From positions 1,859,001 to 1,923,000 of the forward strand of contig NZ_JAUFQI010000001.1 in assembly GCF_030409715.1 (NCBI RefSeq): a stretch of DNA of 64,000 nucleotides, given 5' to 3'. Position numbers and translations under genes: made by a program. The DNA comes from Reinekea marina. Lineage in GTDB: Bacteria > Pseudomonadota > Gammaproteobacteria > Pseudomonadales > Natronospirillaceae. The notes below the pieces were generated by a model that saw only the letters and a program-made list of their open reading frames with translations, was not told where the DNA came from and made no database searches. Every line of letters begins with the position of its first letter. The stretch's first letter is position 1. This document shows positions 747 through 62,645 of the stretch, piece after piece.

Positions 747-812
747 TAAAAAGATAGCTGCAAGTTTTTAACTGCAAGCTGCTAGTAAGGGCAAGGTTAA
801 AAGATAGTTATT

Positions 813-1025
813 GGCTGCGGGCTGCGGGTTTTAGGAAAAACCCATAAACCAAAGCGTTACCGTTGGTGGTTTAGCCATACTTGTAGGAGCCTTCGGAACG
901 CAGTGGAGAGGCGATGGAGTAGCACAAAGCAATCGCGTCTTCGCAAGCTTCGAACACTCCTACCAGGTGTGTGGCCGGTTTATGATGTTGAACAAACTCG
1001 CAGCACGCAGCTCGCAGCCCAAAAC
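813..1025. repeat. Middle GCTGCGG-type inverted arms
   Basis: The left arm (813-832) has two GGCTGCGG-like heptamers followed by GTTTT. The right arm (999-1025) reads as GCAGC-type heptamers ending CCCAAAAC. They are inverted relative to each other and enclose the REPIN-like element at 882-965. Confidence 0.65.
882..965. repeat. REPIN-like palindromic element, copy 1
   Basis: The element starts TGTAGGAGCCTTCGGAACGC and ends with an imperfect inverted copy finishing CACTCCTACC. It has a short variable centre flanked by GGCGAT and ATCGCG. Two further full copies lie at 3612-3694 and 9233-9316. The TGTAGGAGC end resembles REP sequences of pseudomonads. No RAYT transposase is present in the window. 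Confidence 0.8.
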
Positions 1026-1060
1026 GACCTTAGCCTCTTCACATGCACCTGAAATCGGGT

Positions 1061-1100
1061 GGTGATGCGGTTGCTCTATGGCAACCGTTCACCGCTTTTT
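1061..1100 (+). terminator. Probable rho-independent terminator downstream of flgE
   Basis: The stem pairs GGTGA-CGGTTGC with GCAACCG-TCACC around a TCTATG loop and is followed by GCTTTTTACT. It lies in the right place to end the transcript coming from flgE. Confidence 0.65.
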
Positions 1101-1259
1101 ACTGCTAATCCTTACCGCCAAAACCGTCTGCTTTCTTATATTTGAAATTCAATAAAAACAGTCACTTATCCAGTGATTTTCATAAAACTCCATATAAATC
1201 AGTAGCTTGCAGCTTATAGCTTGCAGCTAGTCGCTCTAAAAACCTCCTTCAGAGGTTGT

Positions 1260-4866: not shown

Positions 4867-4869
4867 AAA

Positions 4870-5003
4870 AGCTACAAGTTTTGAGCTGCAAGCTTCAAGC
4901 AAGTACAAAAGAAAAGACTTGACGCCTGCCATTAGCCCACGCAAATTTTTTTGCTTGCAGCTTGCAGCTTGCAGCTTGCAGCTTGCAGCTTGCAGCTTGC
5001 AGC
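4870..5003. repeat. Heptamer-type inverted pair with 7-copy GCTTGCA array
   Basis: The left arm (4870-4903) carries degenerate AGCTGCAAG-type heptamers. The right arm (4953-5003) is seven perfect tandem copies of GCTTGCA plus GC. The array ends 16 bp before a sigma-54-type promoter. Perfect short tandem copies of this kind are prone to replication slippage. Confidence 0.9.
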
Positions 5004-9000: not shown

Positions 9001-9154
9001 AGACAAAACCACCGAAGAGCTTACCGATATTAAAGGCGTAAACCTAGATGAAGAAGCCGCAAGATTAATAGAGTTTCAAGCCGCCTATAACGCTAATGCG
9101 AAAGTAATTTCGATAGCGCAGGAATTGTTTGATTCATTGTTAGCGGCGTTTTAG
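6092..9154 (+). CDS. flgK: Hook-filament junction protein FlgK (HAP1), enlarged
   Basis: FlgK joins the hook to the filament and is exported by the flagellar apparatus. The N-terminal axial domain is canonical (NISNANTPGYSRQEV near residue 28). The C-terminal helix is also canonical (GVNLDEEAARLIEFQAAYNANAKVI, ending SLLAAF). At 1020 residues it is nearly twice the usual 550-650. The extra length lies in the middle (roughly residues 330-920), where the surface-exposed D2/D3 region is found. No frameshift is apparent. It is coupled to flgJ and followed by a repeat-filled spacer before flgL. Confidence 0.95.
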   Translation: MSILGTAITGLKAHQEALKTTGHNISNANTPGYSRQEVVMSSATPLYRGFGYVGQGVNVDTVRRIENQFLQGQLNSDTSAFNHLQTYREQIEQVDRILADDRTGLQPQLDRYFAALQGAADNPAYVPSRDVVLGEAQGLVDRFETISRYLADQESVVNSQIEAAVAQVNAIANGIAQLNEKIVTAQGSATSAPPNDLYDKREELVRQLAEFVDIDVIDVGATVNIAIGNGNPLVMKYEAAKLEAAPGLQDPFRVGIKFVSKVENVEITDSLNKGSIAGFLDFREEGLSTAINSLGRLAVAFTQETNKTHKLGVDLEGRFGNDFFQDLNDPSLTTRRVFAFGDNALPNDNLFNVYFKDSEQLTTSDYTFHVPGPENSRYEITRNDTGEVIKEGGLSNEYPQSFEFDGLELVLEAGTFSEGDSFTIAPLRDVAQQMELLIRQPSELALAYPIKANTSLSNQGSGLINQGAMLSRDSNAFAVDGKLSPPLLVQFESENRYSVLDNSDPGNPRPLRPPMENLMFVPGAVNTIFTDDPGQTMVNSWRARLPYQPTIGYGGPSTASLNNGINPERFTFYQTDPVTGKETALPTISTPGSASAKDIVQELNLVEGVEARAYTEVQLANFTNSGTPYDPDNPFEIWVNGKEITQTLTSLNQTTYMEGYPEEVPEEMGPNFLADRINHHYELQQMGIRAKSDGETLTIIDESGNDILVEMRGDKPQPVITGAPILPPGIPANVNAYIDPGDTFMLSTGEQWSVDVVQGDTQGKISNLTGYDFSSDGPYEFKMYLPDGRTGYVELTGNHETGEDVKAELAAKIQAQLDSPGYVKAEIDERGNLSYQIFMSVEGTGNNDVSRVNVGGQVDITMADGIRLKTDPTVGGIFNGTPEAKSTYMGFQFEISGRPVAGDEFAIGWNENGVSDNRNALDLVAIETTDTVNVEDGGMTLTESYSQTVEQIGTLTSQAQIRSDSAKAVLDKTTEELTDIKGVNLDEEAARLIEFQAAYNANAKVISIAQELFDSLLAAF

Positions 9155-9168
9155 GTGGGGCGGTTTTG

Positions 9169-9426
9169 GGTTTTAGGCTGCGGGCTACGGGTTAAGAGAT
9201 TAAAGGCCTAAGTGCGTTGGCCGAATAGTATTTGTAGGAGCGTACGAAACGCAGTGGAGACGCGAAAAGGGTGGCAACAAAGGTTCGCGTCTCCGCAAGC
9301 TCCGAGCGCTCCTACAAGAATGTTTAATGTAATGTATCAATTTGAAAAAATTGTTTTTTGCGTAAGGGCAACCATCGCGGTTTTAAATCATTCAAACCCG
9401 CAGCTCGAAGCCCGCAGCTTAAAACC
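9169..9426. repeat. GCTGCGG-type inverted arms enclosing a REPIN-like element
   Basis: The left arm (9169-9191) starts GGTTTTAGGCTGCGGGCT. The right arm (9397-9426) is an inverted, slightly degenerate copy ending GCAGCTTAAAACC. The REPIN-like copy at 9233-9316 lies between them. This repeats the nested order seen in the flgE-flgF spacer. Confidence 0.75.
9233..9316. repeat. REPIN-like palindromic element, copy 3
   Basis: It begins TGTAGGAGCGTACGAAACGC and ends GAGCGCTCCTACA. The inner flanks GGAGACGCGAA and TTCGCGTCTCC are perfectly inverted. It is the best-conserved palindrome of the three full copies. Confidence 0.82.
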
Positions 9427-9452
9427 AATCAAAACCATAAGGGTGACATAAA

Positions 9453-10709
9453 ATGGCCGATAGAGTTTCCAGTTACTGGATCTACCAACGCCCTGTAAAC
9501 GATATGATGACGCTGCAAGCGAATTTGAATCGTACACAGGAGCAGTTGAGCACAGGCAAAAAACTTTTATCGCCGTCGGATGATCCAGTTGGTGCTGCCC
9601 GTGTACTGCAACTCGATCAAGAAATAGCGTTGCTTAATCAGTACGAACGTAACATTACCCTGCTCGATTCTCGTTTAGAAGCCGAAGAAAGTGTGTTAAA
9701 CGGCATTACCAGCACCATTCAACGCGTGCGCGAGCTAACGGTGCAAGCCGGTAACGCTGCTGTTTACAGTACCTCTGAACGTATCGCCATTGGCGAAGAA
9801 ATTAGTCAACGCGTCAAAGAGATGTACGATCTCATGAATAGTAAAGATGGCGGTGGCGAATACATTTTCTCTGGCTTTGCGGGTGATCAACAGCCGTTTG
9901 TGAAAAACCCTGGGGGCGGATACAGCTATCAGGGCGATGAAGGCGTTCGGTTCTTACAAATCAGCCGCTCTATTACCATAGCATCGAGCGACAGCGGTAA
10001 AGACGCTTTTTTAGACGTCGATGCCAATGTGCCTTCTTTTTTTACGTCGGCCAGTTCTGAAAACCGAGGCAACCCGCCCGCTGTTATTTCTGCCGGTATC
10101 ACCGTAGATCAAGAAGCATTAAACGACTTCTTCCCAGAAAACGCGGTCATTACTTTTAACAATGAACTCGACGTAGATCCACCCGGCCCTAATTACACCA
10201 TTCGGCAAAAATCGGATGGTCGGCCAGTCGATACTTTCGAAAACGTCCCCTATACACCTGGTGCGGCCATTCAATTTAAAGGTATGAATGTCAATGTAAC
10301 TGGAAAGCCTTACCCTGGTGATAAATTCGTAATTGAAACATCACCGAAACAAGGCTTGTTAGTCACCACTGAAAAATTAGAATACGCACTGAATAACTTC
10401 AGCGATGCACCAGAATTCAGTGATGCCTATGACGAGGCCATATTCAATACACTCGAAAACTTAGACGCCGCCTTAGAAAAAGTAGCGCTTGTGCGCGCAA
10501 GAATTGGTTCAAGGCTGAATACCACCGAAACCACCATGAACCAGCACGCCGATAACAAATTGGCCGCACAAGATATTCGTTCAAGCATTCGAGATTTAGA
10601 TTACGCAGAAGCCATCAGCCGACTACAGCTGGAAGAATTTGTATTACAAGCCTCACAACAAACCTTCGCCAAAGTCACCTCGCAGAGTTTGTTTGACTTC
10701 ATCCGCTAA
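9453..10709 (+). CDS. flgL: Hook-filament junction protein FlgL (HAP3)
   Basis: FlgL (418 residues) forms the second junction layer between FlgK and flagellin. It has flagellin-like ends. Near the N-terminus are LNRTQEQLSTGKKLLSPSDD and ARVLQLDQEIALL. The C-terminal helices include VRARIGSRLNTTETT and ISRLQLEEFVLQASQQTF, ending SLFDFIR. The length is at the upper end of the usual range but not extreme. An AGGGTGA ribosome site precedes the ATG. Two compact hairpins with GAA loops sit at its 3' end. Confidence 0.93.
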   Translation: MADRVSSYWIYQRPVNDMMTLQANLNRTQEQLSTGKKLLSPSDDPVGAARVLQLDQEIALLNQYERNITLLDSRLEAEESVLNGITSTIQRVRELTVQAGNAAVYSTSERIAIGEEISQRVKEMYDLMNSKDGGGEYIFSGFAGDQQPFVKNPGGGYSYQGDEGVRFLQISRSITIASSDSGKDAFLDVDANVPSFFTSASSENRGNPPAVISAGITVDQEALNDFFPENAVITFNNELDVDPPGPNYTIRQKSDGRPVDTFENVPYTPGAAIQFKGMNVNVTGKPYPGDKFVIETSPKQGLLVTTEKLEYALNNFSDAPEFSDAYDEAIFNTLENLDAALEKVALVRARIGSRLNTTETTMNQHADNKLAAQDIRSSIRDLDYAEAISRLQLEEFVLQASQQTFAKVTSQSLFDFIR

Positions 10710-10747
10710 CCGAAGGTTAGTGGATAGAACTTTTGCCCGAAGGGCAA
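10706..10747 (+). other. Two tandem GAA-loop hairpins at the flgL stop
   Basis: CTAACC-GAA-GGTTAG (10706-10720) overlaps the flgL stop codon, and TTGCCC-GAA-GGGCAA (10733-10747) follows. Both are perfect 6-bp stems with the same loop. Neither has a proper T run, so they may stabilise the mRNA end rather than terminate transcription. Confidence 0.5.
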
Positions 10748-10753
10748 CAGCTG

Positions 10754-10837
10754 GCTGCAAGCTGCAAGTAAGGTCAAATCCCCAATACCTTGCTATACTT
10801 TGTCTCAATAACTTTTTACTTACTTGCAGCTTGCAGC
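10754..10837. repeat. Perfect 19-bp inverted repeat of GCTGCAA heptamers
   Basis: The arms at 10754-10772 and 10819-10837 are exact reverse complements built from two heptamers and a TAAG end. They are separated by 46 bp of unrelated sequence. This is the cleanest member of the heptamer-arm family in the window and serves as its reference form. Confidence 0.9.
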
Positions 10838-10867
10838 TATATACTTGCAGCTCAAAACGAGGTTCCA

Positions 10868-11161
10868 ATGCCCACCCTCAAACAACTCGACACCGCCTTT
10901 AACGACCTTTGGCTCAACACCGAACAACTTCCAACATTATTAGATAAATGGCAAGAAATGGTCAGTGAACACCTTTCAACCCTGGGCGACAATAAAGAAG
11001 ATTTAGACGCTTTCGAAGAACGCATGATTTTTTGGCACGCCGTACTAGAAGAAAACCGCAGCCTAATCCAAGCCCATCAAGCCACTTTGAAAGAAACCAT
11101 CAAAACGGGAGAGCCAAGCCCTAAGAAAGATGAGCAGACGCGGGCTTATAGGAAGAATTAG
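10868..11161 (+). CDS. Small charged protein of unknown function between flgL and fliC
   Basis: This is a 97-residue acidic, helix-rich protein with no signal peptide or membrane segment. Conserved-looking features are an N-terminal LKQLDTAFNDLWL and a central AFEERMIFWHAVLEENRSLIQ. The start is set at the ATG at 10868, preceded by GAGG. An upstream in-frame extension would run through repeat DNA and is not credible. I do not recognise a family. Its size, helical character and position suggest, by inference only, a flagellar chaperone or assembly factor of the FlgN/FliT kind. It is flanked by repeats on both sides. Confidence 0.6.
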   Translation: MPTLKQLDTAFNDLWLNTEQLPTLLDKWQEMVSEHLSTLGDNKEDLDAFEERMIFWHAVLEENRSLIQAHQATLKETIKTGEPSPKKDEQTRAYRKN

Positions 11162-11165
11162 AGAA

Positions 11166-11430
11166 AGCTGGAAGTTTTGAGCTGCAAGCTGCAAGTAAGT
11201 TCAAAAACCAATATACCCTGCTTCGTAACTCTTTTTGTAGGATTCTTCGGAATGCAGTGGAGAGGCGACAAGAGAGAAGATAGCTGCAAGTTTTGAGCTG
11301 CAAGCTGCGAGTAAGTTCGAAAACCAAAAAAACCTGCTTCGTAACTCTTTTTGTAGGAGTCATCGGAATGCAGTGGAGAGGCGACAAGAGAGAAGATAGC
11401 TGCAAGTTTTAAGCTGCAAGAAAAGTTTAA
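11166..11430. repeat. 116-bp tandem duplication with partial third copy
   Basis: Unit 1 (11166-11281) and unit 2 (11282-11397) are nearly identical, and a truncated third copy starts at 11398. Each unit contains a heptamer arm (GAGCTGCAAGCTGC), the sequence CTGCTTCGTAACTCTTTTTG, and a left half-REPIN starting TGTAGGA and ending GGCGAC. The right half of the REPIN is missing in both. Confidence 0.9.
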
Positions 11431-11634
11431 AGGAGGTTTTAGCAGCAAGTTGCAAGAAAAAGGAGTAAAACAAACCCAATTCAAAGGCTTACACTTAAAC
11501 CATTACATCTAACCCGCTGTTTGCCTTTTTACCTTTCACGAAGCATAAAACCCGTACCCACTCAAAATCCTTGACCCAACTTGCAGCTGTTTTTTTATAG
11601 TAATAAAAAACAACCCGATTATTCCAAAAAACTA

Positions 11635-11662
11635 TAAAAGATTCTCAAAACTCGGCCGCTAT
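11635..11662 (+). promoter_or_regulatory. Probable sigma-28 promoter of fliC
   Basis: TAAAAGAT, a 12-nt gap, then GCCGCTAT approximates the FliA consensus TAAAGTTT-N11-GCCGATAA. The gap is one base long and the match is partial. Its place about 75 bp before fliC supports it. Confidence 0.5.
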
Positions 11663-11738
11663 AGTAATTGTGAATGAGCAACGTCGCTAAACCATGTCGC
11701 AATAGGGCGGTACGGAAGAAAGCGAAGGAGAATTACTT

Positions 11739-13952
11739 ATGCCTCAAATTATTAATACTAACATCGCTTCGTTAACGGCTCAGCGTAACTTAAACAGTTC
11801 GCAGAGCGCTAACTCTACTGCCTTAGAGCGTTTGTCATCTGGTCTTCGTATTAACAGTGCGAAAGACGATGCGGCGGGCTTGGCAATTTCTACTAACTTC
11901 GAGTCTCAAGTTAAAGGCTTGAACGTCGCTATCCGTAACGCGGGTGACGGTATCTCTTTAGCGCAAACTGCTGAAGGTGCCCTAGGCGCAATGACTGAAA
12001 ACCTACAGCGTATTCGTGAGCTAGCGGTTCAGTCTTCTAACGCAACTAACTCAGACGATGACCGAGTTAAGCTACAAGCGGAAGTTAAGCAGTTGATGGC
12101 GGAAGTCACACGTACTGCCGATGAAACAAACTTCAACGGCCGTAACCTACTAGACGGTTCTTTCGAAGGTACCTTCCAGATTGGTGCGGATGCGGGTCAA
12201 ACCGTTGATGTGAAAATTTCAGAATTGACTGCAGAGAAGTTGGGTACCAGTTCTCAAGCGGGTGTGAGTTCTTATTCCACAGGTACTGCGATTGGTAACG
12301 GTGACTTAGTAATCAATGGCGAAACGATTCGTGCTTCGGTAGCTGGTGATGATCAGTTGTCTTTCGGAACTAAACGTTCGGCTAGTGCTATTGCAAAGGC
12401 AGCAGCAATTAATGAATCTAGTGATCAAACTAATGTTGTAGCTACCGCAAATGAAAACGTAATGTCAGGTAGTCAAATGGTTGCTGGTACTACTGCTACT
12501 GCTACAGCTGCTTCAGCAATCGTACTGAATGGTGTATCCATTTCACTCGAAGGTACAGCAAATGCCACTGAAGCAGACTTAGCCGCCACACGAGGCTCGG
12601 TTATTGAATCAATTAACGCTCAATCAGGAAAGACCGGCGTTATAGCAAGTGATGGTGGGAATAATGGTGGCGTTACATTAACCGCAGAAGATGGGCGAAA
12701 TATTACCATTACATCAACAGTAAACGATCTGGCTGCGTTTGGGTTGAAAGATAGTGATACAACGGCTGCTAGTGCAGAGGAGTCTTTTGCCTCGGTAACT
12801 CTTACAGCACAAGACTCTCAAACCAATATTGTCATAGACGGAGGAAATGGTACCGGAAATGGAGATATTTCAAACACCGGTTTTGCTGCCGGTGAGTACG
12901 GTGGTCAAATTAGTTCGACAACAACACAAGAAAGTAGTCAAGCATGGGATACAGATGCTGCTACTACCTTGGCGGCATCAACGACCAAGGCGTTACAGGA
13001 TGGTGATTTAGTAATAAATAATGTTGCCATAAGAGCCTCTTCGAGCCTTGACGATACCTCATCCTATGCTGATGCAGCTAATGCTGCCAGTTCATATACT
13101 GCTGCATCAGGTATTGCTATCGCTGCAGCGATTAATGACTCCACAGATCAAACTGGCGTTACTGCTACAGTAAATGCAACAACATACACTGGTGTAACAA
13201 CCGGTGCTGCGACCACTGGTGGTACTGCAGGTGATACTCTAGACTTAAGACTAAATGGAGTATCAATTACATTGACTGAAACAGGTGATTACGAAAAGAA
13301 TAAAGCGAATGCAATCACTGCAATTAATGAAAAGTCTGGTCAGACGGGAGTTGTGGCAGAAGATAACGGTAAGTCACTAACTTTAACGGCCGCTGATGGT
13401 CGTAACATAACAATGTTTGCTGTTACGCCTGCTGCAAATGCTGGTGATGAAAACGAATTTGGTCTCGAAGGAGTTGCATCTGGAGTTGTGGCAAACGTCG
13501 CGCAAACTTCTACCTACTACTCTACTGTATCGCTATCATCCGCTAGCGCGTTCGAAGTGAGTGTTGGGTCAAATGGTATTGCTGGATTGACAGACTCTGG
13601 ATTCCAAGCAGGTTCATTTGGTGGCGGTGAAGATGGTCAGTACTTAGCTGACGTCGATATCTCTACTTTTGAAGGTGCGCAGTCTGCTATAACCGCAATT
13701 GATAATGCTTTAAGCACCGTTGCTAGCCAACGTGCAGAACTCGGTGCATTGCAAAACCGATTCGAGTCTACCAGCTCAAACCTTCAGATTACGTCTGAAA
13801 ACTTGTCAGCGGCAAACTCTCGAATCCGTGATGCGGACTTCGCGGCCGAAACAGCCGAACTGTCTCGTACCCAGGTACTACAGCAGGCCGGTATTTCGAT
13901 CTTAGCTCAGGCTAACCAGCGTCCACAGCAGGTATTATCACTACTCGGTTAA
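11739..13952 (+). CDS. fliC: Flagellin FliC, enlarged with duplicated central module
   Basis: This is the major filament subunit. The N-terminal D0/D1 domain is canonical (INTNIASLTAQRNLNSSQ, then LERLSSGLRINSAKDDAAGLAI). The C-terminal helix is also canonical (AELSRTQVLQQAGISILAQANQ, ending VLSLLG). At 737 residues it is much longer than the usual 280-500. The extra length is a surface region holding two similar modules at about residues 180-390 and 410-620. Each has GDLVIN, IRAS, AAAIN-S-DQT, LNGVSI, AIN-KSGQTGV-A and LTA-DGRNIT motifs. The ribosome site AAGGAG is strong. flaG follows 105 bp downstream. Confidence 0.96.
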   Translation: MPQIINTNIASLTAQRNLNSSQSANSTALERLSSGLRINSAKDDAAGLAISTNFESQVKGLNVAIRNAGDGISLAQTAEGALGAMTENLQRIRELAVQSSNATNSDDDRVKLQAEVKQLMAEVTRTADETNFNGRNLLDGSFEGTFQIGADAGQTVDVKISELTAEKLGTSSQAGVSSYSTGTAIGNGDLVINGETIRASVAGDDQLSFGTKRSASAIAKAAAINESSDQTNVVATANENVMSGSQMVAGTTATATAASAIVLNGVSISLEGTANATEADLAATRGSVIESINAQSGKTGVIASDGGNNGGVTLTAEDGRNITITSTVNDLAAFGLKDSDTTAASAEESFASVTLTAQDSQTNIVIDGGNGTGNGDISNTGFAAGEYGGQISSTTTQESSQAWDTDAATTLAASTTKALQDGDLVINNVAIRASSSLDDTSSYADAANAASSYTAASGIAIAAAINDSTDQTGVTATVNATTYTGVTTGAATTGGTAGDTLDLRLNGVSITLTETGDYEKNKANAITAINEKSGQTGVVAEDNGKSLTLTAADGRNITMFAVTPAANAGDENEFGLEGVASGVVANVAQTSTYYSTVSLSSASAFEVSVGSNGIAGLTDSGFQAGSFGGGEDGQYLADVDISTFEGAQSAITAIDNALSTVASQRAELGALQNRFESTSSNLQITSENLSAANSRIRDADFAAETAELSRTQVLQQAGISILAQANQRPQQVLSLLG

Positions 13953-14057
13953 TAGCGAAACCATTGGGGAGGGTCGCTTAGCGGCCTAACCCAGCGCTAA
14001 AGCTCTTGAATAAAGTAGTTTTAAGAGTAATCGACAGGTGAACGGAGGTGTTAAAGT

Positions 14058-14468
14058 ATGAATGAAATTAGTATGCAGCCATCGCTAAATGCTAAGCCTT
14101 CCGCACCAACGCGCGACACTGGAAAGTCGGGGTTTAATGGAATAAAGCCCACGGTAGAGCAAGCGGAAGCACGCCAGGCCGAGAAAAGTGACTCAGTAAC
14201 TTCATATGCATCACAGCAAAAAGAAGCCGCCGAGAAACCTAAAGAAGAAAGCGTTGAGCAAGCTGTAGCGAAACTTAACGATTATGTTCAAAACACAGAG
14301 CGCAAGCTTGAGTTTCAGCTAGATGAAGATTCTGGCAAAACAGTGATAAGAGTTTACGATAAAGTATCAGATGAGTTGATTCGTCAGATGCCGAATGAAG
14401 AAGCCTTAGAACTGGCTCAACGCTTAAGTCAAGAAGAGCCGCTGATGTTGTTTAGTGCGCAGGTCTGA
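14058..14468 (+). CDS. flaG: FlaG family flagellar protein
   Basis: FlaG (136 residues) is a small protein next to flagellin genes in polarly flagellated bacteria; loss in other species changes filament length. The C-terminal half carries the family pattern, from VAKLNDYVQNTERKLEFQLD through KTVIRVYDKVSDELIRQMPNEEAL to a short end. The N-terminal half is low complexity and charged. A GGAGGTG ribosome site precedes the ATG. A strong terminator directly after the stop ends the unit, so fliD is transcribed separately. Confidence 0.9.
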   Translation: MNEISMQPSLNAKPSAPTRDTGKSGFNGIKPTVEQAEARQAEKSDSVTSYASQQKEAAEKPKEESVEQAVAKLNDYVQNTERKLEFQLDEDSGKTVIRVYDKVSDELIRQMPNEEALELAQRLSQEEPLMLFSAQV

Positions 14469-14470
14469 TA

Positions 14471-14497
14471 AAAAAACCGCCTTTGGCGGTTTTTTTT
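14471..14497 (+). terminator. Rho-independent terminator after flaG
   Basis: The perfect stem AAACCGCC-TTT-GGCGGTTT is followed by a T run. It starts 3 bp after the flaG stop codon. Confidence 0.92.
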
Positions 14498-15065
14498 GTT
14501 TTGGGCTTCGGGCTTCGAGCTTCGGGTTTGAACCTAAAACTTAAAACCTACAAGCTAATTATGTGCTCTCGGTGAGCGATCTTGAAAGGCCTGTTAACAT
14601 TCTTGATATAATATCTAATTGATTGATCCATTTCGTACCTAATTCTTTGTCTAAATAATTTACCTTCTGACCAATCCATATTTGTGTTTTAAGTTCAGCT
14701 GCTGAACTATAGGTAATGTTTAAAAATCGTTTCTTTTCTGAAGCACTCGTTCGGGACATGCCTTCGGCGATATTCGAAGGGATAGACAGGCCGGATCGGG
14801 TTGCTTGGTCTTTAAAGCCCCAGTCCCTTAAATCCTTTAATTCAATGTATAATTCGGCACTCAATTGAGCAGAAGCTTTCCAAACGTCTAGCTTTTCAAA
14901 ATTCATATAATCATCCTTGATTAGTTTTTCAGAATCTAAACGTTACAGGAGTTTTGAAACCTTGAACGTAAACTGAGTCACAGGGTGGGGATAGTTTTGA
15001 GCGGCGGGCTATGGGCTGCGGGTATCAATCTTTAAACCAGAAGCTCGCAGCCCGCAGCCAAAAAC
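14498..15065. repeat. 26-nt inverted repeats bracketing a four-helix-bundle gene
   Basis: The arms at 14498-14523 and 15040-15065 are reverse complements at 23 of 26 positions. They begin GTTTT and contain GGCT-CGGGCT-CGAGCTTC. The only gene between them is the reverse-strand gene at 14559-14906. A third, less similar arm (about 14995-15022) lies beside the right one, so a compact local pair is also possible. The arms belong to the same heptamer family as those in the other spacers. Confidence 0.7.
14559..14906 (-). CDS. Four helix bundle protein (S23 / intervening-sequence protein family)
   Basis: This 115-residue protein matches the four-helix-bundle family first known from 23S rRNA intervening sequences and related to the Avd proteins of diversity-generating retroelements. 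Recognisable pieces are FEKLDVWKASAQLS at the start, the central GFKDQATRSGLSIPSNIAEG and the later FLNITYSSAAELKTQIWIG. The biochemical role of stand-alone members is not established. The start is supported by AAGGATGATTAT before the ATG. It is read against the flagellar genes, sits inside 26-nt inverted repeats, and has no reverse transcriptase nearby, so it looks like an insertion. Confidence 0.88.
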   Translation of the reverse strand: MNFEKLDVWKASAQLSAELYIELKDLRDWGFKDQATRSGLSIPSNIAEGMSRTSASEKKRFLNITYSSAAELKTQIWIGQKVNYLDKELGTKWINQLDIISRMLTGLSRSLTEST

Positions 15066-15081
15066 TGCTCTCCAAAACCCC

Positions 15082-15108
15082 TAAAGTTTTAACCAAATCG
15101 GCCGATAC
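15082..15108 (+). promoter_or_regulatory. Sigma-28 (FliA) promoter of fliD
   Basis: TAAAGTTT, exactly 11 nt, then GCCGATAC matches the FliA consensus at 15 of 16 positions. It lies about 80 bp before the fliD start and past the repeat arms. Confidence 0.85.
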
Positions 15109-15190
15109 AATAATCAACCCATGGTCTATCCTAAAATCATGGTTTGGTTTTTGCATTAAGACACTGTTCAACGTTTAAAGGTTATCGGTT

Positions 15191-18100
15191 ATGGCGGGCA
15201 TACAATCACTGGGTATCGGTTCTGGGTTGCTAACTTCAGACTTAGTCGATCAATTAGTGGCTGCGGAAAGGGCGGCAAGTGATCTCCGTTTGGACGGTAA
15301 GACTGCTCGTGTAGAGGCGAAGATTTCCGCTTATGCCGAAGTCCGTAAGGTGATGGATGGTTTGCAATCGAGTATTGGCAGTCTTGCTCAAGCCAGTACT
15401 ATTCAAAGCAGCTCAGCCAGCTCTTCTGATGAATCTGTGCTTACTGCAACCACTACTAGCCTAGCTGAACCGGGTTCTTATCGTATCGAAGTAGATGAAA
15501 TCGCTAAAGCGCACTCTTTGGCGAGTATGCAATTCAGTTCCGTGGATGACACTGTGGGTACGGGCACGTTAACTTTTAAGTTTGGTACCACTACCTATGA
15601 CGGTTCTGATGAATATTTAGCGTTTGAGCAAGATGCCGACAGTGCAGTAACCTCTATTGATATTACTTCTGAAAATAACACCTTAGGCGGCATACGAGAT
15701 GCCATCAATAATGAAGATTTTGGTGTGTCGGCTTCAGTGGTGTACGACGGTACGGGATACCGTCTATTGCTCACCAGTGAGGAAACGGGTGAAGAAACCA
15801 GTATGGAGATTGAAGTCTCGGGTGATGCTGGCTTGCAATCTTTAGCATATAACAGCGCTCAGCATGATCCTGCCAGTAACATGACCGAAACACAATCGGG
15901 TTCGGATGCGCTGATACGAATCAACGGGCTAACCGTTACAAGTGCAACGAATAAATTGGATCAGGTTGTGCGCGGCGTGACCATTAACCTAAATGAAAGC
16001 AGTTTAACGGGTGTCATGCTAAACGTAACCCGTGATACCGATGAAATTGCCGATAAGCTTGAAGCGTTCGTCGAAAAATATAATGAGTACAAAACTATTT
16101 ACGATGAACTAACCAAATACAACCCAGATGATGAAATTGGCGGTATTTTGTTAGGTGATAACGTATTGCGTACCGTGCAATCACAATTGCGTGCGGGTAT
16201 CACTGAAATTATTTCTGGTGTTACAGGCTCTACCTATAAATCACTTATTGAAATTGGCATCAGTACCGACCAAACCGATAATTTTAATTTAAAATTTGAT
16301 CGAGCTGAATTCAAAAAAGCGATGGAAACCGACGCTCAAAGTTTGGTGGGGTTACTCGCTACCGATAACCAAACATCAGATGCTCAAGTTAAAGTAGTCA
16401 ACGTGGGTCCAAATACCAAGCCTGGCACCTATGATGTTAATGTTACTCAAGTTGCCACACAGGGCACTTTTAAAGGTCTAACAACACCGGCGTTAAGTTT
16501 TGCAAGCGATGTTGTGGTATCGGATGTAAACGATGAGTTCTCTATGACGGTAGACGGAAAAACGCAATCCGTAACGTTAGAGCAGGGAACTTACAGCACC
16601 GGTGAAGATTTAGCCTTGATGCTGCAAAACAGTATTAACAGTGCATTTAGTGGTCAAAGCGTGACGGTTACTTTTGATGATGCTAACGATCGCTTTGATA
16701 TAACTTCAAGCAAGTTTGGCAGCAGTTCAGAAGTTACCATTGGCTCGGGTGATGCGCTTGTAGCAAATACTTTTGGCTTTGCCAGTTCCGGCACCGGCCA
16801 ATTTGCAGGTAGCTTTTTTAATACCTTAAATGATGCGGCTTTTGCAGCGTCTACCAACCCAGGTACGCAAGCCTTTACCGGTGAATCGGGAGCCGATTTT
16901 TCGGCTAGTCCTGTAACGTTTGATTTAACACTGGCGGGTACAACGGCTGATGGAACCTATACAATATCATTGGATGAGAACTGGGCCGACGTAGTCGATA
17001 CCGATGGAAACATTACTACCGATAGAGATCGTTCTGATGTGTTAACTTACATTCAAAGCGAACTTAACAATGCTGGTTTAGCGGGAGTCGTGACCGCCGA
17101 ATTTAATAGCAGTGATCGTTTGGTCATGCGTACTGAGCCAACCGCAGGTATTAGTCAAACGATCACCGTTGCGAATACCAATGTGACCGGTTTTGATTAC
17201 TTAGGCATCACCGATGGGGCAAACAACTCAGGGTTTGCTATGTCTGGCGCCGACTTTGAATTGGCTTATTCCAATCGTCAGGGCAGTGTCAGTGGCGCAG
17301 CGCCGATTAGTGTACCTGCAGGTACCTATGAAACCGCAGAAGAATTAGCTACGGCAATAGAAACCGCTATTAATGCCGATGCAAACATTAGCGCTGGAGC
17401 AAAAGGTGCGGCTACAGAAGCAGGGTCTAGAAGCTTGGCCAGCGCAGTAGATTTTACCAGCGATCCTGCCCAGTTTGAATTTGATCTAAACGGGACTAAC
17501 TTCGTTGTAGATGTTAACGCCAACGGCGCCAATAACCTTGCCAGCATTCAAAGTGCACTGGATACCGCATTGGCCGCCGGTGGAGCGAGTGCAGGTGATG
17601 TTGTTGCGAGTTTAGACAGCAATGGGCTGGTACTCACAACCAATGCAACTGGGTCTGCACAAACGCTTGAAATTAAACGAGATGGCATTGGCGCAACCAC
17701 CAATGCGGGTACGGCCGATTTATCTACAGGTGTCGATTTTTCATTGACACCTTCGGCCTTTACCTTGGCTGTTGATGGCATCGATATAGAAGTAACCGTT
17801 GATGGTGATGGTACCGCTAACAGCAACGATGGTGAATCTAACCTTGCGGTGATACAAAGTGCCTTAGATACCGCCTTAACAGCGGCTGGCGGAGGCGGTG
17901 AATTCCAAGCTGGCGATGTAGTGGCTAAGCTCAATGCCAGTAATCAAGTGTACTTCGAAACCGTGTCAAAAAACGGTGTGCAAACTGAAGCGACATTTGG
18001 CGCGGATGCGACTATTCAAATCACAGCGGCAGATGCCAACGCAAACTCGACATTGGGTATTACTAACGGCGCACTCAATATTAATGGCTTAGACGGCTTT

Positions 18101-19096
18101 GGTTTAGATAAAGGTGTGTATAACGGTTTTGATTCGCAAAGTACCGTCAGCTACGAAAAAGATGAAGACGGCAAAGGCCGTTTTGTTATTGCATTCGATA
18201 ACAGCACTAATATCACTATCAGCAACCCATCGGTTTCTGCTATTGCTCAATTAGGCCTTTCTGCTACCAACCAAAGCACGGCCGACACAGCAACCGGAGT
18301 TGATGTTGAAGGTACAATTAACGGCGTAGCAGCCACTGGTCGCGGCCAATACTTAACCGCCTCTGAAGGCAACTCGGCTGCAACAAACGGCTATTTGCTG
18401 GGAGGAACAGGTTCCGATTTTTCAAGCGCTGAAATTATAGACGGTACTAATAACACCTTAAAGGTTGTGATTGATGGTACAGAATCGGGCACCATTACAT
18501 TAACCTCAGGTGCTTATGCCTTAGGTAATGAATTAGCCGCTGAGCTTAAAGCACAAATTAACGCCGATGCAACGCTTAAAGGCGCAAATAAAGCTGTAGA
18601 TGTGCAATATGATGCTGACACCAATACCTTTGGTATTTTTTCAGTGTCTAAGGGTTCCGAGTCGACCGTAAAAGTTAGTGAAATCGCTTCGGGTGCAATT
18701 GATATTTTTGGTTTTACTACAACGACACAAGGTGTCAAAGGTAAAGACACCCAAGGCTCAGTAGATGATGCCGCGGGACTCATGCTTAAAATCGGCGGCA
18801 CACGAACAGGCGACAGAGGCACCGTAACCTATGTGCAAGGGGTCATGTCAAAGTTAGATGAATTGTTTGACAGCATGTTGTCATCAAAAGGATTGTTAAC
18901 TGAAAAAGAAAGTAACCTAGTCGATGATCAGGAAGCAATAGAAGCCGAACGCAAAGAGATTGATGAAAAAACATCAGTGTTTGAAGCCAGGTTAAGAGCA
19001 AAGTTTTTATTTAACGATAAATTAATCAGCTCACTTAAAGTGACCGAGGATTTCTTGAAAAGCCAATTTGAAGCGATGAATGCTTCGAAAGAATAA
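15191..19096 (+). CDS. fliD: Flagellar filament cap protein FliD (HAP2), giant form
   Basis: FliD caps the filament tip and helps insert flagellin; it can also act as an adhesin in some bacteria. The N-terminus is canonical (GIQSLGIGSGLLTSDLVDQLVAAE). The C-terminal coiled coil is intact (VMSKLDELFDSMLSSKGLLTEKES, then SVFEARLRAKF). At 1301 residues it is about three times the usual 400-480. The middle is an array of beta-rich Ig-like segments. A clear pair begins at about residues 748 and 840, sharing DF-PA-F-(D), LA-IQSALDTAL-A-GG and GDVVA-L motifs. fliS does not follow; the next gene is on the other strand. Confidence 0.95.
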   Translation: MAGIQSLGIGSGLLTSDLVDQLVAAERAASDLRLDGKTARVEAKISAYAEVRKVMDGLQSSIGSLAQASTIQSSSASSSDESVLTATTTSLAEPGSYRIEVDEIAKAHSLASMQFSSVDDTVGTGTLTFKFGTTTYDGSDEYLAFEQDADSAVTSIDITSENNTLGGIRDAINNEDFGVSASVVYDGTGYRLLLTSEETGEETSMEIEVSGDAGLQSLAYNSAQHDPASNMTETQSGSDALIRINGLTVTSATNKLDQVVRGVTINLNESSLTGVMLNVTRDTDEIADKLEAFVEKYNEYKTIYDELTKYNPDDEIGGILLGDNVLRTVQSQLRAGITEIISGVTGSTYKSLIEIGISTDQTDNFNLKFDRAEFKKAMETDAQSLVGLLATDNQTSDAQVKVVNVGPNTKPGTYDVNVTQVATQGTFKGLTTPALSFASDVVVSDVNDEFSMTVDGKTQSVTLEQGTYSTGEDLALMLQNSINSAFSGQSVTVTFDDANDRFDITSSKFGSSSEVTIGSGDALVANTFGFASSGTGQFAGSFFNTLNDAAFAASTNPGTQAFTGESGADFSASPVTFDLTLAGTTADGTYTISLDENWADVVDTDGNITTDRDRSDVLTYIQSELNNAGLAGVVTAEFNSSDRLVMRTEPTAGISQTITVANTNVTGFDYLGITDGANNSGFAMSGADFELAYSNRQGSVSGAAPISVPAGTYETAEELATAIETAINADANISAGAKGAATEAGSRSLASAVDFTSDPAQFEFDLNGTNFVVDVNANGANNLASIQSALDTALAAGGASAGDVVASLDSNGLVLTTNATGSAQTLEIKRDGIGATTNAGTADLSTGVDFSLTPSAFTLAVDGIDIEVTVDGDGTANSNDGESNLAVIQSALDTALTAAGGGGEFQAGDVVAKLNASNQVYFETVSKNGVQTEATFGADATIQITAADANANSTLGITNGALNINGLDGFGLDKGVYNGFDSQSTVSYEKDEDGKGRFVIAFDNSTNITISNPSVSAIAQLGLSATNQSTADTATGVDVEGTINGVAATGRGQYLTASEGNSAATNGYLLGGTGSDFSSAEIIDGTNNTLKVVIDGTESGTITLTSGAYALGNELAAELKAQINADATLKGANKAVDVQYDADTNTFGIFSVSKGSESTVKVSEIASGAIDIFGFTTTTQGVKGKDTQGSVDDAAGLMLKIGGTRTGDRGTVTYVQGVMSKLDELFDSMLSSKGLLTEKESNLVDDQEAIEAERKEIDEKTSVFEARLRAKFLFNDKLISSLKVTEDFLKSQFEAMNASKE

Positions 19097-19100
19097 AAGA

Positions 19101-19219
19101 AGCTGCAAGTATTTAGCTGCAAGCTGCCAGTAAAAACCGAAGAAAACCCAAGTACTTTAAGTATTAGGTTGCTTCGGTTTTTTTATTGGAACTTACTTGC
19201 AGCTATTAACTTGCAGCCC
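19101..19219. repeat. Heptamer-type inverted arms around the fliD terminator
   Basis: The left arm (19101-19133) has AGCTGCAAG-type heptamers ending CAGTAA. The right arm (19193-19219) starts TTACTTGCAGC. They are inverted and flank the terminator hairpin. Confidence 0.75.
19133..19184 (+). terminator. Rho-independent terminator after fliD
   Basis: AAACCGAAG pairs with CTTCGGTTT, followed by a T run, with a further imperfect stem inside. It lies 36 bp after the fliD stop. Confidence 0.8.
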
Positions 19220-19221
19220 GC

Positions 19222-19240
19222 GGTTGCCCAGCGGGCAACC
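19222..19240 (-). terminator. Hairpin downstream of the nuclease gene
   Basis: GGTTGCCC-AGC-GGGCAACC is a perfect 8-bp stem lying just past the nuclease stop codon on the reverse strand. The T run is poor in that direction, so termination is only possible. Confidence 0.4.
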
Positions 19241-19251
19241 GTTCCGTTTTG

Positions 19252-21786
19252 TTACCTAAAACTCTCCGTCACGCTTACTTGAGCCCCTTCATCATCTTCT
19301 ACGGTTAGAGAGATTGAATCTAGGTGATTTTTATGGACGTAGCGTTTTGCTATGAAGAACCACGGCTTGGTGATTTCTAAGTTACCGAGTGTCCACGTAT
19401 GCGATGCAATGTAGCCATCGTTATCATGGCTATCGCTAACAAAGATATACCAAAATAGAAATCGGTAGGCTCTTATGTTTGCGTTAGGCGCTTCGTTTAG
19501 GGCGACATCAATAATAACAGGGTCGTGATCTGATGAGCGATAAGCATCAGGAGCATAGAGGCTGAGTACTTGAGCATCCGATTTATACTCAGTGTTGTAA
19601 TCCAAAATGAGTGGCTCATCGGTATTTATGTGCCAATCTTGAGTGTGAATTACTTTTTCGGCTAATGCATTTGAAGCCAACGCTTGATCAAGGCTGCCGG
19701 TTTCACCATCGAACACATAAGAATAATCGCCATCTTGTTTCAGTTGGTTAAAGCCTGCTGACTCAATTGCGCGAATAGGGTCTTCTTTGCTGTAAGCGTT
19801 TAAATCACCCATGATCAACACTTTATCGGTCTCAACACCAGTCGGGTTGCTTTCTAACCACTGAGTTAAGGCTAGTGCGGCATTCGTACGCGTTTGGTTG
19901 TATGCACCTTGGCCTTCGTCGCAATCGGCAATGTCGCCACAGTTTCGGCTACCTTTTGACTTAAAGTGATTCACAACCATGGTGATTGCTTCCGCACCGT
20001 CTAGCGATTTAAACGTTTGTGTTAATGCCGGGCGATTACGAGAGTCATCAAATAATGGCTCACCCAATTCATTTAATGGTGAGTTAGATGAATCCAGTAT
20101 GGCGGTCACACCAGCTGGTTGCACAACAGAAGGGCGGTAAATGATGCCAACGGCAATGGCATCGTCGCCAATCTGTGCCACGCCCGGGTTTATGTATTGA
20201 TATTGGTTTTCGGCGCTTTGCTGCACATTAATGGCGCGAACTAAATCGGCAATGGCGCTGGTATCGGCAAAACCATCGTTTTCAATTTCCATTAAACCAA
20301 TGACATCAGCATCAATGGCTGTCATGGCGGCAACGAGTTTGGCGGTTTGTCGCTCTAATTCGTATGCGTTATCGGCGCCACGAGGAGTAGGGAAACCACC
20401 ACCTAGGCCATCACCATTGAAGTAGTTTAAAACGTTAAAGCTAGCAATTCGCAAATCGCTTTCCGCCACTTGCGTAGGCTCTAACGTACGAGGGTTGTCG
20501 CCATTAAAAACCGGAGCGGTGGTTGGTATTAATTTAAACTTACCGAAATTAAAATTAATAACACCGGTGAGGTTAGTTACCGTGTTGCCAATGCGCAGCG
20601 TGTTGTTGGCATCTAAAGCCGGAGCCGGGAAGATAACCGGGTCAGGGTTTTGCGTTTTAAAACCATCATCCACAATGAGCATGTTAAGGTCGTTGGCGGC
20701 GTGTATCGCATCGGCATCGGGGCCAGGTAGGGCCACGTCGGTTGGGATGCGGCGACGGCCATTGGCAACCATAAATTCGCCATAGCGACCTAATGCATAT
20801 ACTTCATTCACCATTAAAGGCGAGCTAGCTGTCACTCTCATGCCTTCAAGTGCTTCTAAGTCATTCTCTGAGCTAAACGGCAGGTTGAGAGTAGCCGCCA
20901 TGGGCAAGCTGTTACCGCTGCTACATATAGTAATATCAGAAACACTGGTTAATTGCGTTAAGCCATAAAATTCATCGGCTTCGCCCCGCACGCGTACTTT
21001 ATCGCCAACAGCGACATCGGTACTGTAGTGGTAAATAAACAAGCCTTCAGAGGTTTGAGGATCGGCATCAACATCCGTATCTAAAGATTGTACGAAGAAG
21101 CCCTTGGCTTGATTACTGGCTTGTAAGTCAGCCACGACAATCGCTTCAATATCAACTACCTGGCCTAAAATTGGCGAAGCAGAGCCATTGCCTTGTACTT
21201 CAGAAATTTTAGTCGCTGGGTCGGCGCAATTAAACGCACTCGGTGGCTCTACAGGGTCTTCACCCGGTGCCCCATTGCCTAAATAAGTAAATGTATTACT
21301 GGGATGCTCATTCCAAGAAGTCGAATAGTCAAAAGAATCGCTTGGGTTGGCATCACCTAGGGTGTCGCTTTTGCGAGTTAACGTCACATTGGCTGCAAAG
21401 GTAGTGCTATTGCCGAGTTGCCCAATGCTGTCAACGACAATGCCATTTTTCTTTAGTAAAACAACATCATTGCCATTAAAGTTTGCTACGCCATCGGTAA
21501 TATCAGCAACGTTTAAAATTTGAGGCACGGCACGGCTATTGGCAACCACATAGGCCGAGTTAGGCGCTAATGCGCCCGAAAGCGTGAGAATATTAGTAGC
21601 TGTCGTTGCGCCATTGGAGTATAGCTCTATTGAATACGGGCTTAGATCTGCCGGATTAGAATCGAAATTAGTGAGCTCGAGTGCTTTATTATAACTTGAG
21701 CCCTCGATGTACTCAGTCAGCAACACATCGGCATAGGCTGCGTTTGCAAGCAGTATGCCGACTATTAACGGGGTGCGTAAGGTCAT
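19252..21786 (-). CDS. Exported ExeM/NucH-like endonuclease/exonuclease/phosphatase-fold nuclease
   Basis: This is an extracellular or cell-surface nuclease of about 844 residues, likely used to degrade environmental DNA for phosphate or in biofilm turnover. A signal peptide (LIVGILLANAAYA) is followed by a lamin-tail-type domain (DVLLTEYIEGSSYNKALELTN). An OB-like segment begins at ISEVQGNGSASPILGQ. The catalytic EEP domain runs from about residue 443 (RIASFNVLNYFN), with LMEIENDGF, VVNHFKSKG, LIMGDLNAY and SSDHDPVII. A short PKD-like tail ends the protein. I chose the ATG at 21786 because it starts the signal peptide and has AGGATT upstream. The C-terminal GlyGly-CTERM anchor of many ExeM proteins is absent. 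Confidence 0.88.
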   Translation of the reverse strand: MTLRTPLIVGILLANAAYADVLLTEYIEGSSYNKALELTNFDSNPADLSPYSIELYSNGATTATNILTLSGALAPNSAYVVANSRAVPQILNVADITDGVANFNGNDVVLLKKNGIVVDSIGQLGNSTTFAANVTLTRKSDTLGDANPSDSFDYSTSWNEHPSNTFTYLGNGAPGEDPVEPPSAFNCADPATKISEVQGNGSASPILGQVVDIEAIVVADLQASNQAKGFFVQSLDTDVDADPQTSEGLFIYHYSTDVAVGDKVRVRGEADEFYGLTQLTSVSDITICSSGNSLPMAATLNLPFSSENDLEALEGMRVTASSPLMVNEVYALGRYGEFMVANGRRRIPTDVALPGPDADAIHAANDLNMLIVDDGFKTQNPDPVIFPAPALDANNTLRIGNTVTNLTGVINFNFGKFKLIPTTAPVFNGDNPRTLEPTQVAESDLRIASFNVLNYFNGDGLGGGFPTPRGADNAYELERQTAKLVAAMTAIDADVIGLMEIENDGFADTSAIADLVRAINVQQSAENQYQYINPGVAQIGDDAIAVGIIYRPSVVQPAGVTAILDSSNSPLNELGEPLFDDSRNRPALTQTFKSLDGAEAITMVVNHFKSKGSRNCGDIADCDEGQGAYNQTRTNAALALTQWLESNPTGVETDKVLIMGDLNAYSKEDPIRAIESAGFNQLKQDGDYSYVFDGETGSLDQALASNALAEKVIHTQDWHINTDEPLILDYNTEYKSDAQVLSLYAPDAYRSSDHDPVIIDVALNEAPNANIRAYRFLFWYIFVSDSHDNDGYIASHTWTLGNLEITKPWFFIAKRYVHKNHLDSISLTVEDDEGAQVSVTESFR

Positions 21787-62300: not shown

Positions 62301-62645
62301 GACAGGCTACGTATAAAAAGACGGCGCTATTATCGTGAGTTTTGATATGTCAAACAAGGGGTTAAGTCAAATGTTTATATGGTTTTTTGGAATAAGGACA
62401 GGTTAAAAGAACGGCTGCCCGAAAGGGCAGTCCGTTAACTTCTAGTTTTGAGCTGCAAGCTGCAAGCTACAAGTGAACAGAAGGAGTTTAAGCCTAAGCT
62501 TTCAGTAGTGACCCATGGAGAAAGCTCCTAATACTGATTCTGCTTGCAGCTTGCAGCTTGCAGCTTGCAGCTTGCAGCTTGCAGCTTGCAGCTTGCAGCT
62601 TGCAGCTTGCAGCTTGCAGCTTGCAGCTACTAACTTCTAACTTTA
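62301..62645. other. Repeat-filled spacer between metG and rsxA
   Basis: This spacer has a hairpin (CGGCTGCCC-GAAA-GGGCAGTCCG, about 62412-62434), a heptamer-type left arm (62445-62473) and a long heptamer array (62542-62628). The short frame read through the array is not a gene. No promoter for rsxA could be named with confidence. Confidence 0.75.
62445..62628. repeat. Heptamer-type inverted pair with 12-copy GCTTGCA array
   Basis: The left arm (62445-62473) starts GTTTTGAGCTGCAAGC. The right arm (62542-62628) is 12 perfect tandem GCTTGCA copies plus GCT. The array ends 17 bp from the metG stop codon. It is the longest tandem run in the window. Confidence 0.92.

What the first reader, a model, noticed from the sequence alone, without database searches (positions are those of the whole stretch)
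14498..15065. Four-helix-bundle gene bracketed by 26-nt inverted repeats inside the flagellar cluster
The arms at 14498-14523 and 15040-15065 match at 23 of 26 positions as inverted repeats. The only gene between them is a reverse-strand S23/IVP-type gene. It sits between flaG, which has its own terminator, and fliD, which has its own sigma-28 promoter, so it has been placed in a neutral gap. The arms belong to the heptamer palindrome family seen in neighbouring spacers. This suggests, by inference, a palindromic element carrying a small gene as cargo, or a gene captured between two elements. A nearby third arm allows a simpler reading.
Basis: partly seen in the sequence, partly recalled or inferred. 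Interest (0 to 1): 0.72.

Follow-up and report, generated by a model that had tools for sequence, protein, structure and literature searches.

The report
Heptamer-armed S23 gene: a mobile element
A small gene of unknown function sits between mirror-image rows of seven-letter repeats in a marine bacterium's flagellar cluster; the same gene-plus-repeats unit recurs in many bacterial groups and is present or absent as a block at several plasmid sites, which may help explain why bacteria carry so many seven-letter repeats.

Summary
In detail: arms matching at 23 of 26 positions (0 of 200 shuffles reach that) bracket one intact S23/IVP gene (PF05635) in a Reinekea flaG–fliD spacer. The block is absent there in two congeners, seems frame-broken in R. 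blandensis and is decayed in G005.

The larger result is a general architecture. In 110 S23 loci of many phyla the 5' flank pairs with the reverse complement of its own 3' flank (median score 16.5; mismatched loci 8.5). The best repeat period is 7 in 80 of 110, against 7 of 99 controls. Heptamers read AGNNNNN in the 5' arm. They differ between genomes, and gene-less arrays of the same heptamer are dispersed in four genome groups tested. Fifteen cyanobacterial plasmid loci gave 12 of 15.

Six plasmid sites have filled and unfilled states between similar flanks, so the unit moves. A 182-nt gene-less heptamer palindrome interrupts one S23 gene.

It works like the 23S rRNA intervening sequence but lies outside rRNA. 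How it moves, and whether S23 acts on the arms, is inferred: no shared target duplication was seen, and family searches found neither RVT_1 nor Y1 transposase in this genome.

The parts
14058..14468 (+). flaG, upstream neighbour
14470..14496 (+). intrinsic terminator of flaG; element begins just after it
   Evidence: similar hairpin in G001, G005, G004
14498..14530 (.). left arm: imperfect heptamers GGCTTCG GGCTTCG AGCTTCG; this is the 3' arm on the S23 coding strand
14559..14906 (-). S23/IVP four-helix-bundle gene, 115 aa, intact
   Evidence: PF05635 8.6e-27, NF008912 2.2e-43; protein kept against G001
14995..15022 (.). third arm; local palindrome partner of the right arm
   Evidence: folds locally on the S23 strand
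15040..15065 (.). right arm: heptamers, inverted partner of the left arm (23/26); this is the 5' arm on the S23 coding strand
   Evidence: shuffle test
15082..15108 (+). sigma-28-like promoter of fliD (TAAAGTTT ... GCCGATAC); right border of the element
   Evidence: conserved in G000, G001, G005, G004, G002; motif identity recalled
15191..19096 (+). fliD, downstream neighbour
   Evidence: ORF
4869..5003 (.). gene-less heptamer palindrome; array is longer by a 78-nt insertion in strain G299
10754..11420 (.). cluster of heptamer palindromes without an S23 gene (19/19 pair at 10754-10772/10819-10837)
   Evidence: 7-nt and 116-nt differences in G299
62436..62635 (.). gene-less heptamer palindrome; array shorter by 56 nt in strain G299
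755..1229. inverted heptamer arms, 417 nt apart; gene content of the gap not examined (no PF05635)

Best explanation
The block is a heptamer-armed S23 element: a mobile unit made of an array of AGNNNNN heptamers, an S23 four-helix-bundle gene, and the inverted array. It inserts as one block of about 0.4-0.6 kb into transcribed but dispensable gaps, often between co-directional genes and in some genomes inside 23S rRNA (the classical intervening sequences). SHOWN: the architecture across phyla, the strand polarity of the heptamers, the match between the arms and that genome's dispersed gene-less arrays for four heptamers tested, and filled/unfilled sites. INFERRED: the paired arms make the insertion tolerable (a hairpin, or an RNase III substrate as in 23S IVSs); the S23 protein, recorded as a homopentamer in Xanthomonas, binds the paired heptamers and promotes insertion of its own unit and of gene-less units in trans; host repair or replication joins the DNA. 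In the window, one such unit entered the flaG-fliD gap before G000, G001 and G005 separated. It stays intact in G000/G299 and is decaying in the other two.
For: Matched versus mismatched flanks: median 16.5 versus 8.5; score of at least 14 in 73 of 110 versus 1.5%. Best lag 7 in 80 of 110 versus 7 of 99 controls. Independent plasmid set: 12 of 15 versus 1 of 15 (L346/L347 and L341/L342 are near-duplicates). Polarity, in 96 non-redundant loci: 5' arm AG run longer in 50, CT in 9; 3' arm AG 14, CT 43 (ties and runs under 3 left out). Code match: AGCTKCN arrays only in G000, G299, G001 of 7 genus genomes; AGATNCN 135 hits, all in G003; AGTAGGC in 8 of 55 and AGGNGTG in 4 of 55 genomes. Filled/unfilled sites A-F, flank identity 80-97% per 400 nt. 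Gene-less 182-nt heptamer insertion inside an S23 gene, and a gene-less palindrome at the same site as an S23 unit (L358). G000 versus G001 S23: pS 0.94, pN 0.13. Two loci lie in 23S rRNA by Rfam with the same kind of arms.
Against: No target duplication common to the sites. No movement seen between G000 and G299 in the stretches compared. 18 of 110 loci have no best lag at a multiple of 7; site C has heptamer-poor arms. Arm mismatches show no excess of G-U on the S23 strand (65 versus 81, p 0.21), so no support for an RNA stem. On the S23 strand the right arm prefers its local partner. S23 points with co-directional neighbours in 63 and against them in 8, but ordinary neighbouring genes do much the same (57 versus 10). 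No test shows that S23 touches the arms. The window copy is antisense to both neighbours, a minority state (8 of 103). One S23-negative genome (G017) has one AGGNGTG array.
Confidence: 0.72

Rival explanations
1. Heptamer arrays are ordinary slippage repeats that each genome grows on its own; S23 genes happen to be tolerated or captured between two of them.
For: Arrays change length between strains by 56 and 7 nt, and by 78 nt (77+1). Heptamer pattern hits far outnumber S23 copies in G000 (121 hits versus 1 gene). Inverted repeats of 22/26 and 24/26 occur elsewhere in the window.
Against: Unfilled junctions A, B, C, E, F have no heptamers, so arms and gene appear together there. The association holds in 80 of 110 loci against 2 arrays per 400 kb of sampled G000. 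Fixed AG polarity relative to the gene.
Confidence: 0.15
2. The arms act at RNA level as in 23S intervening sequences: the transcript folds, RNase III cuts the unit out, and the S23 gene is neutral or nearly so.
For: Two loci (L011, L012) lie inside 23S rRNA (Rfam RF02541) and have the same kind of heptamer arms. [quoted passage not shown]
Against: G-U asymmetry absent. The S23 protein is kept between G000 and G001, so it is not simply neutral filler. S23-strand fold of the window copy z -1.5, other strand -3.2.
Confidence: 0.35
3. The arms are REP-type palindromes spread by a RAYT (Y1) transposase, with S23 as passenger.
For: Dispersed palindromic intergenic repeats without an obvious target duplication; Y1 matches in 78 of 115 relatives.
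Against: G000 itself has no PF01797 match. Arms are 7-nt periodic arrays with a genome-specific unit.
Confidence: 0.05
4. Reverse-transcribed insertion in trans: S23, a relative of the Avd helper of diversity-generating retroelements (relationship recalled), hands its RNA to a resident reverse transcriptase.
For: Weak PF05635 matches in G081, G100 and G016 lie within about 1 kb of RVT_1 matches. RVT_1 present in 10 of 15 S23 genomes versus 36 of 97 without (p 0.047; counts made by hand).
Against: G000 has no RVT_1 match. The p value is marginal and uncorrected for genome size.
Confidence: 0.15

Closest known systems
Intervening sequences (IVS) of 23S rRNA with an S23p ORF (Coxiella, Leptospira; PMC4990558)
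   Same: Terminal inverted repeats around one S23/IVP gene; heptameric repeats recorded upstream of the Coxiella S23p ORF; called a selfish element, and an ORF role in mobility was proposed earlier (cited there).
   Different: This copy lies in a flagellar intergenic gap, antisense to its neighbours, not in rRNA; RNase III excision untested. Only L011 and L012 of the sampled loci were recognised as 23S (the screen used their own flanks, so others could be missed).
Dispersed heptamer repeats: Xanthomonas GGGAATC, Nostoc GGGGATT (PMC4692102), Beggiatoaceae TAACTGA (PMC4679880)
   Same: Genome-specific heptamers in intergenic arrays, in Xanthomonas often as facing pairs (70 cases in one genome).
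   Different: Neither main text contains the word S23; whether those heptamers match local S23 arms was not tested.
Avd of diversity-generating retroelements
   Same: The same Pfam family gives weak matches next to RVT_1 genes.
   Different: No RVT_1 match in this genome; template/variable repeat pairs were not searched for.
REP/BIME palindromes and RAYT transposases; MITEs
   Same: Short palindromic dispersed units with gene-bearing and gene-less forms.
   Different: 7-nt periodic arms, no Y1 match, no common target duplication, gene matches no transposase family in Pfam or NCBIfam.

Membership tests
23S rRNA intervening sequence (IVS) | inserted in a 23S rRNA gene | tested here: not met
   lies between flaG and fliD; no Rfam match in 9000-20000
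23S rRNA intervening sequence (IVS) | terminal inverted repeats | tested here: met
   23 of 26
23S rRNA intervening sequence (IVS) | S23/IVP gene inside | tested here: met
   PF05635 8.6e-27
23S rRNA intervening sequence (IVS) | excision from RNA by RNase III | not testable with these tools
   no RNA data
Heptamer-armed S23 element (defined here) | 7-nt periodic inverted arms with one heptamer type | tested here: met
Heptamer-armed S23 element (defined here) | block absent at the same site in relatives | tested here: met
   G002 and G004
Heptamer-armed S23 element (defined here) | gene-less arrays of the same heptamer elsewhere in the genome | tested here: met
DGR / Avd | reverse transcriptase nearby or in genome | tested here: not met
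   no RVT_1 match in G000
REP/RAYT | Y1 (RAYT) transposase | tested here: not met
   no PF01797 match in G000
MITE / IS derivative | target-site duplication | tested here: inconclusive
   short matches at sites A (TTCTA) and B (ATG) only

The most novel reading that the evidence does not exclude
S23/IVP proteins are the mobility factors of a widespread class of minimal mobile element with no known transposase. Its ends are arrays of a heptamer that differs from genome to genome, and trans-action on gene-less units has seeded many of the dispersed heptamer repeats of bacteria; the 23S rRNA intervening sequences are the subset that landed in rRNA.
Probability: 0.4. Interest if true: 0.9.

Novelty: new variant of a known kind. 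Interest (0 to 1): 0.76.

Why it matters
Two old puzzles meet here: why heptamers are the commonest longer simple repeats in many bacterial genomes (attributed to polymerase slippage in the work summarised in PMC4679880, section 3), and what the S23 gene of rRNA intervening sequences does. A single protein family tied to both makes each testable: a small soluble protein, a defined hairpin substrate that differs between genomes, and filled/unfilled site pairs with near-base precision.

Tried and rejected
Chance: rejected. RNA-stem selection on the S23 strand: tested by G-U asymmetry, negative. Orientation preference as evidence of RNA-level insertion: 63 versus 8 (p 1e-11), but control triplets give 57 versus 10, so not used (neighbours from my own simple ORF caller). 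RAYT and reverse transcriptase as required partners: no match in G000. Strain comparison G000/G299 for new insertions: none recognised in the stretches compared, only length changes of 78 (77+1), 56 and 7 nt, a 116-nt gain, a 19-nt gain and small differences at fragment ends or in flagellin. Rfam: no match in 9000-20000. Phage records: no S23 match. De novo lag-7 scan of 400-kb samples could not separate S23-positive from S23-negative congeners (0-2 arrays each); the pattern searches could. Literature: the ten searches cover open-access papers only; no listing or passage seen links S23 to dispersed heptamers or to movement outside rRNA. No structure was predicted, since solved relatives exist (2gsc, 2rld). 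Rows dropped: of 127 S23 loci fetched (21, 80, 26), 2 were skipped because they reach contig ends (L171, L172), 7 removed (4 weak Avd-like L016-L018 and L021, 2 with broken frames L006 and L020, 1 duplicate L013) and 8 had short flanks or N, leaving 110.

Full report
OBSERVATION. The arms at 14498-14523 and 15040-15065 match at 23 of 26 positions in inverted orientation. In 200 dinucleotide shuffles of 14469-15190 none reaches 23 (maximum 20). The gene between them (14559-14906, minus strand, 115 aa) is PF05635, 23S_rRNA_IVP, E 8.6e-27, and NF008912, E 2.2e-43. It is the only PF05635 match in this genome. A third arm, 14995-15022, pairs with the right arm locally, and on the S23 strand this local hairpin is favoured in the minimum-energy fold. 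Equal or better inverted repeats occur in the window without an S23 gene: 22/26 and 24/26 in the steps that start at 721 and 10801, and 20/26 at 23041, of 86 steps; the first two coincide with heptamer arrays.

THE LOCUS IN RELATIVES. The window genome belongs to Reinekea by inference: its congener G001 has the contig length and locus of R. blandensis MED297. G299 (same species) has the whole 1501-base block at 97% identity. G001 has arms and an S23 gene that appears to leave frame near the C-terminus. G005 has a spacer of 570 bases with an S23 remnant holding two stops (tblastn E 4e-7 against four loci) and a heptamer stretch at the right border. G002 and G004 have spacers of 308 and 291 bases without block or arms. 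G003 has no fliD start beside flaG in the fetched stretch. Between G000 and G001 the first 84 codons show pS 0.94 and pN 0.13: synonymous sites are saturated while the protein is kept. Between G000 and G299 there are 3 differences in the S23 gene and none in the 374 bases of arms, spacers and fliD promoter, while fliD differs by 2.6%.

A GENERAL ARCHITECTURE. I collected 127 S23 loci and used 110 after the exclusions listed under Tried and rejected. Local alignment of each 5' flank with the reverse complement of the 3' flank gives a median score of 16.5 for the same locus and 8.5 for mismatched loci. 73 of 110 reach 14, against 1.5% of mismatched pairs. The same-orientation control has a median of 9.25, with 13 of 110 at 14 or more. 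The best repeat period in the flanks is 7 in 80 of 110 loci and 7 of 99 control stretches 1.2 kb away; at least 20 of 28 matches at lag 7 occur in 61% versus 3%. Best lag 7, 14 or 21 by group: Gammaproteobacteria 25 of 29, Verrucomicrobiota 11 of 12, Bacteroidota 10 of 16, and small groups such as Bacillota 2 of 2, Chloroflexota 1 of 1, Planctomycetota 1 of 1, Campylobacteraceae 0 of 1 and Caldiserica 0 of 1 (group labels assigned by me from record titles). 18 of 110 have no such lag. L011 and L012 lie inside 23S rRNA (RF02541) and have heptamer arms as well.

POLARITY AND CODE. Read on the coding strand, the 5' arm tends to carry AG at every seventh base and the 3' arm CT. In 96 non-redundant loci the longer run in the 5' arm is AG in 50 and CT in 9 (p 5e-8); in the 3' arm it is AG in 14 and CT in 43 (p 1.5e-4); the rest were ties or short runs. 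The other five letters differ between loci. Four heptamers were tested for dispersal. AGCTKCN arrays: 66 hits in G000, 42 in G299, 13 in G001, none in G002-G005. AGATNCN, the arm type of one of two G003 copies (L019): 135 hits in G003 and none in the six others. AGTAGGC tripled: 8 of 55 genomes. Three of them (G164, G178, G273) have it in the arms of the fetched S23 copy; in G161 it lies beside an S23 copy that was not fetched; G293 and G296 (same genus) and G133 have one hit each, G236 two, with other or related arms; G228 of the same genus has none. AGGNGTG tripled: G091 12 and G262 8, both with such arms, G241 1, and one hit in an S23-negative genome, G017. G130 and G137, whose arms are imperfect forms of this heptamer, gave none. 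The reversed control pattern gave 14 hits in G075 (S23-positive; the reversed pattern is itself a tripled heptamer), 3 in G003, 1 in G000 and 0 elsewhere in these calls. Part of the hits are the S23 arms themselves, for instance 9 of 14 in G178.

INDEPENDENT SET. A protein search of plasmids gave 15 records, all cyanobacterial. In 12 of 15 the best lag is 7, against 1 of 15 controls; matched flank score median 26, mismatched 9.5. L346/L347 and L341/L342 are near-duplicates, and L348 has periodic but poorly inverted flanks.

FILLED AND UNFILLED SITES. Six plasmid sites show the unit present or absent between related flanks. A: Nostoc, between two genes that are 3 nt apart when empty (L339, L354) and separated by an S23 unit in L350, L355 and L363; a further record, L364, has another short ORF there. 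B: the next gene junction, empty with 0-3 nt in L350 and L354, filled in L339. L339 and L350 are thus each other's empty site. C: Picosynechococcus, between cas10 and cmr3, filled in PCC 7003 (L343), empty in PCC 7002 (L356); its arms do not have best lag 7. D: behind a TraM-like gene, filled in L341 and L342, empty in L357, and in L358 occupied by a gene-less AGGGAAC palindrome. E: Calothrix, after an integrase gene (L346) versus L359 and L360. F: Aulosira (L351), inserted near the 3' end of the upstream gene by my reading, versus L361 and L362. Flank identity over 400 nt ranges from 80 to 97%. Precise insertion is more economical than precise loss where the genes are 0-3 nt apart. L363 carries a 182-nt gene-less heptamer palindrome inside the S23 gene, at a point where L355 is uninterrupted. 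There is no target duplication common to the sites; A repeats TTCTA and B repeats ATG.

CONTEXT CHANGE. Pairs of S23 proteins of 80% identity or more share flanks (9 of 10 on both sides, 1 on one side). Among the 10 pairs at 70-80%, 7 share none, 2 share one side and 1 both; in 4 of those 7, one member (L082 or L085) has almost no downstream flank, so only 3 are full comparisons. At 60-70%, 91 share none, 5 one side and 26 both. Units therefore seem to stay put for a while and change place over longer times.

MECHANISM. Shown: the unit, its polarity, its code for the heptamers tested, and its presence/absence as a block. Inferred: S23 recognises paired heptamers and promotes insertion. The Xanthomonas protein is recorded as a homopentamer in PMC4990558 (passage). 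The movement route is open. G000 has neither RVT_1 nor Y1_Tnp matches. RVT_1 is somewhat commoner with S23 (10 of 15 versus 36 of 97, 3 Avd-only genomes left out, p 0.047), which I regard as inconclusive. Arm mismatches in 63 loci show no G-U bias on the S23 strand (65 versus 81), so an RNA-level role of the arms is neither shown nor excluded.

COMPARISON WITH PRINT. PMC4990558 (passages seen) describes the Coxiella 23S intervening sequence with terminal repeats, RNase III excision, an S23p gene and GACAGAT heptamers upstream of it, and cites earlier proposals that the ORF serves mobility. PMC4679880 (outline with abstract, sections 3 and 24, and passages) and PMC4692102 (section 10 and passages) describe dispersed heptamers; neither main text contains S23. 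The former suggests that a repeat-binding protein might be the mobile part. PMC4476775 (passages) describes two 7-nt repeat classes in the stem of the Nostoc trnL intron, of unknown origin. In the ten paper searches run (listed under Tried and rejected) I saw no statement joining S23 genes with dispersed heptamers.

VERDICT. A real, general and mobile architecture of which the window holds one intact member. It works like an intervening sequence but is not one by location.

Noticed in passing
L343; L345 and L352: S23 units sit inside CRISPR-Cas operons on cyanobacterial plasmids (cas10|cmr3; cas6|cas4).
   Followed up: partly
L003, L004, L006, L007: In four genomes of three families the S23 gene lies between what read as metK and ahcY (gene names recalled from the translated ends), with differing heptamers: a repeated target or an old insertion with fast-changing arms.
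   Followed up: partly
L313, G000 C1 939-940.7 kb: Heptamer arrays recur at a spacing of 354 bases, as in tandem units each bordered by the same array.
   Followed up: no
L306, G000 C1 74.8-77.3 kb: An insertion-sequence-like coding region appears to interrupt a heptamer-bordered repeat; family not searched.
   Followed up: no
window 14201-15200: Only 6 differences per 1000 bases between two strains that differ by about 3% in most compared stretches and by about 9% in the first 400 bases of fliD.
   Followed up: no
L020 (G020): A second S23 copy is interrupted by an insert of roughly 100 bases with its own inverted ends.
   Followed up: no
G075 (S23-positive): The reversed control pattern, itself a tripled heptamer, has 14 hits in this genome, perhaps its own heptamer family.
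   Followed up: no
window 23041-23762: An inverted repeat of 20/26 away from the heptamer arrays already examined.
   Followed up: no
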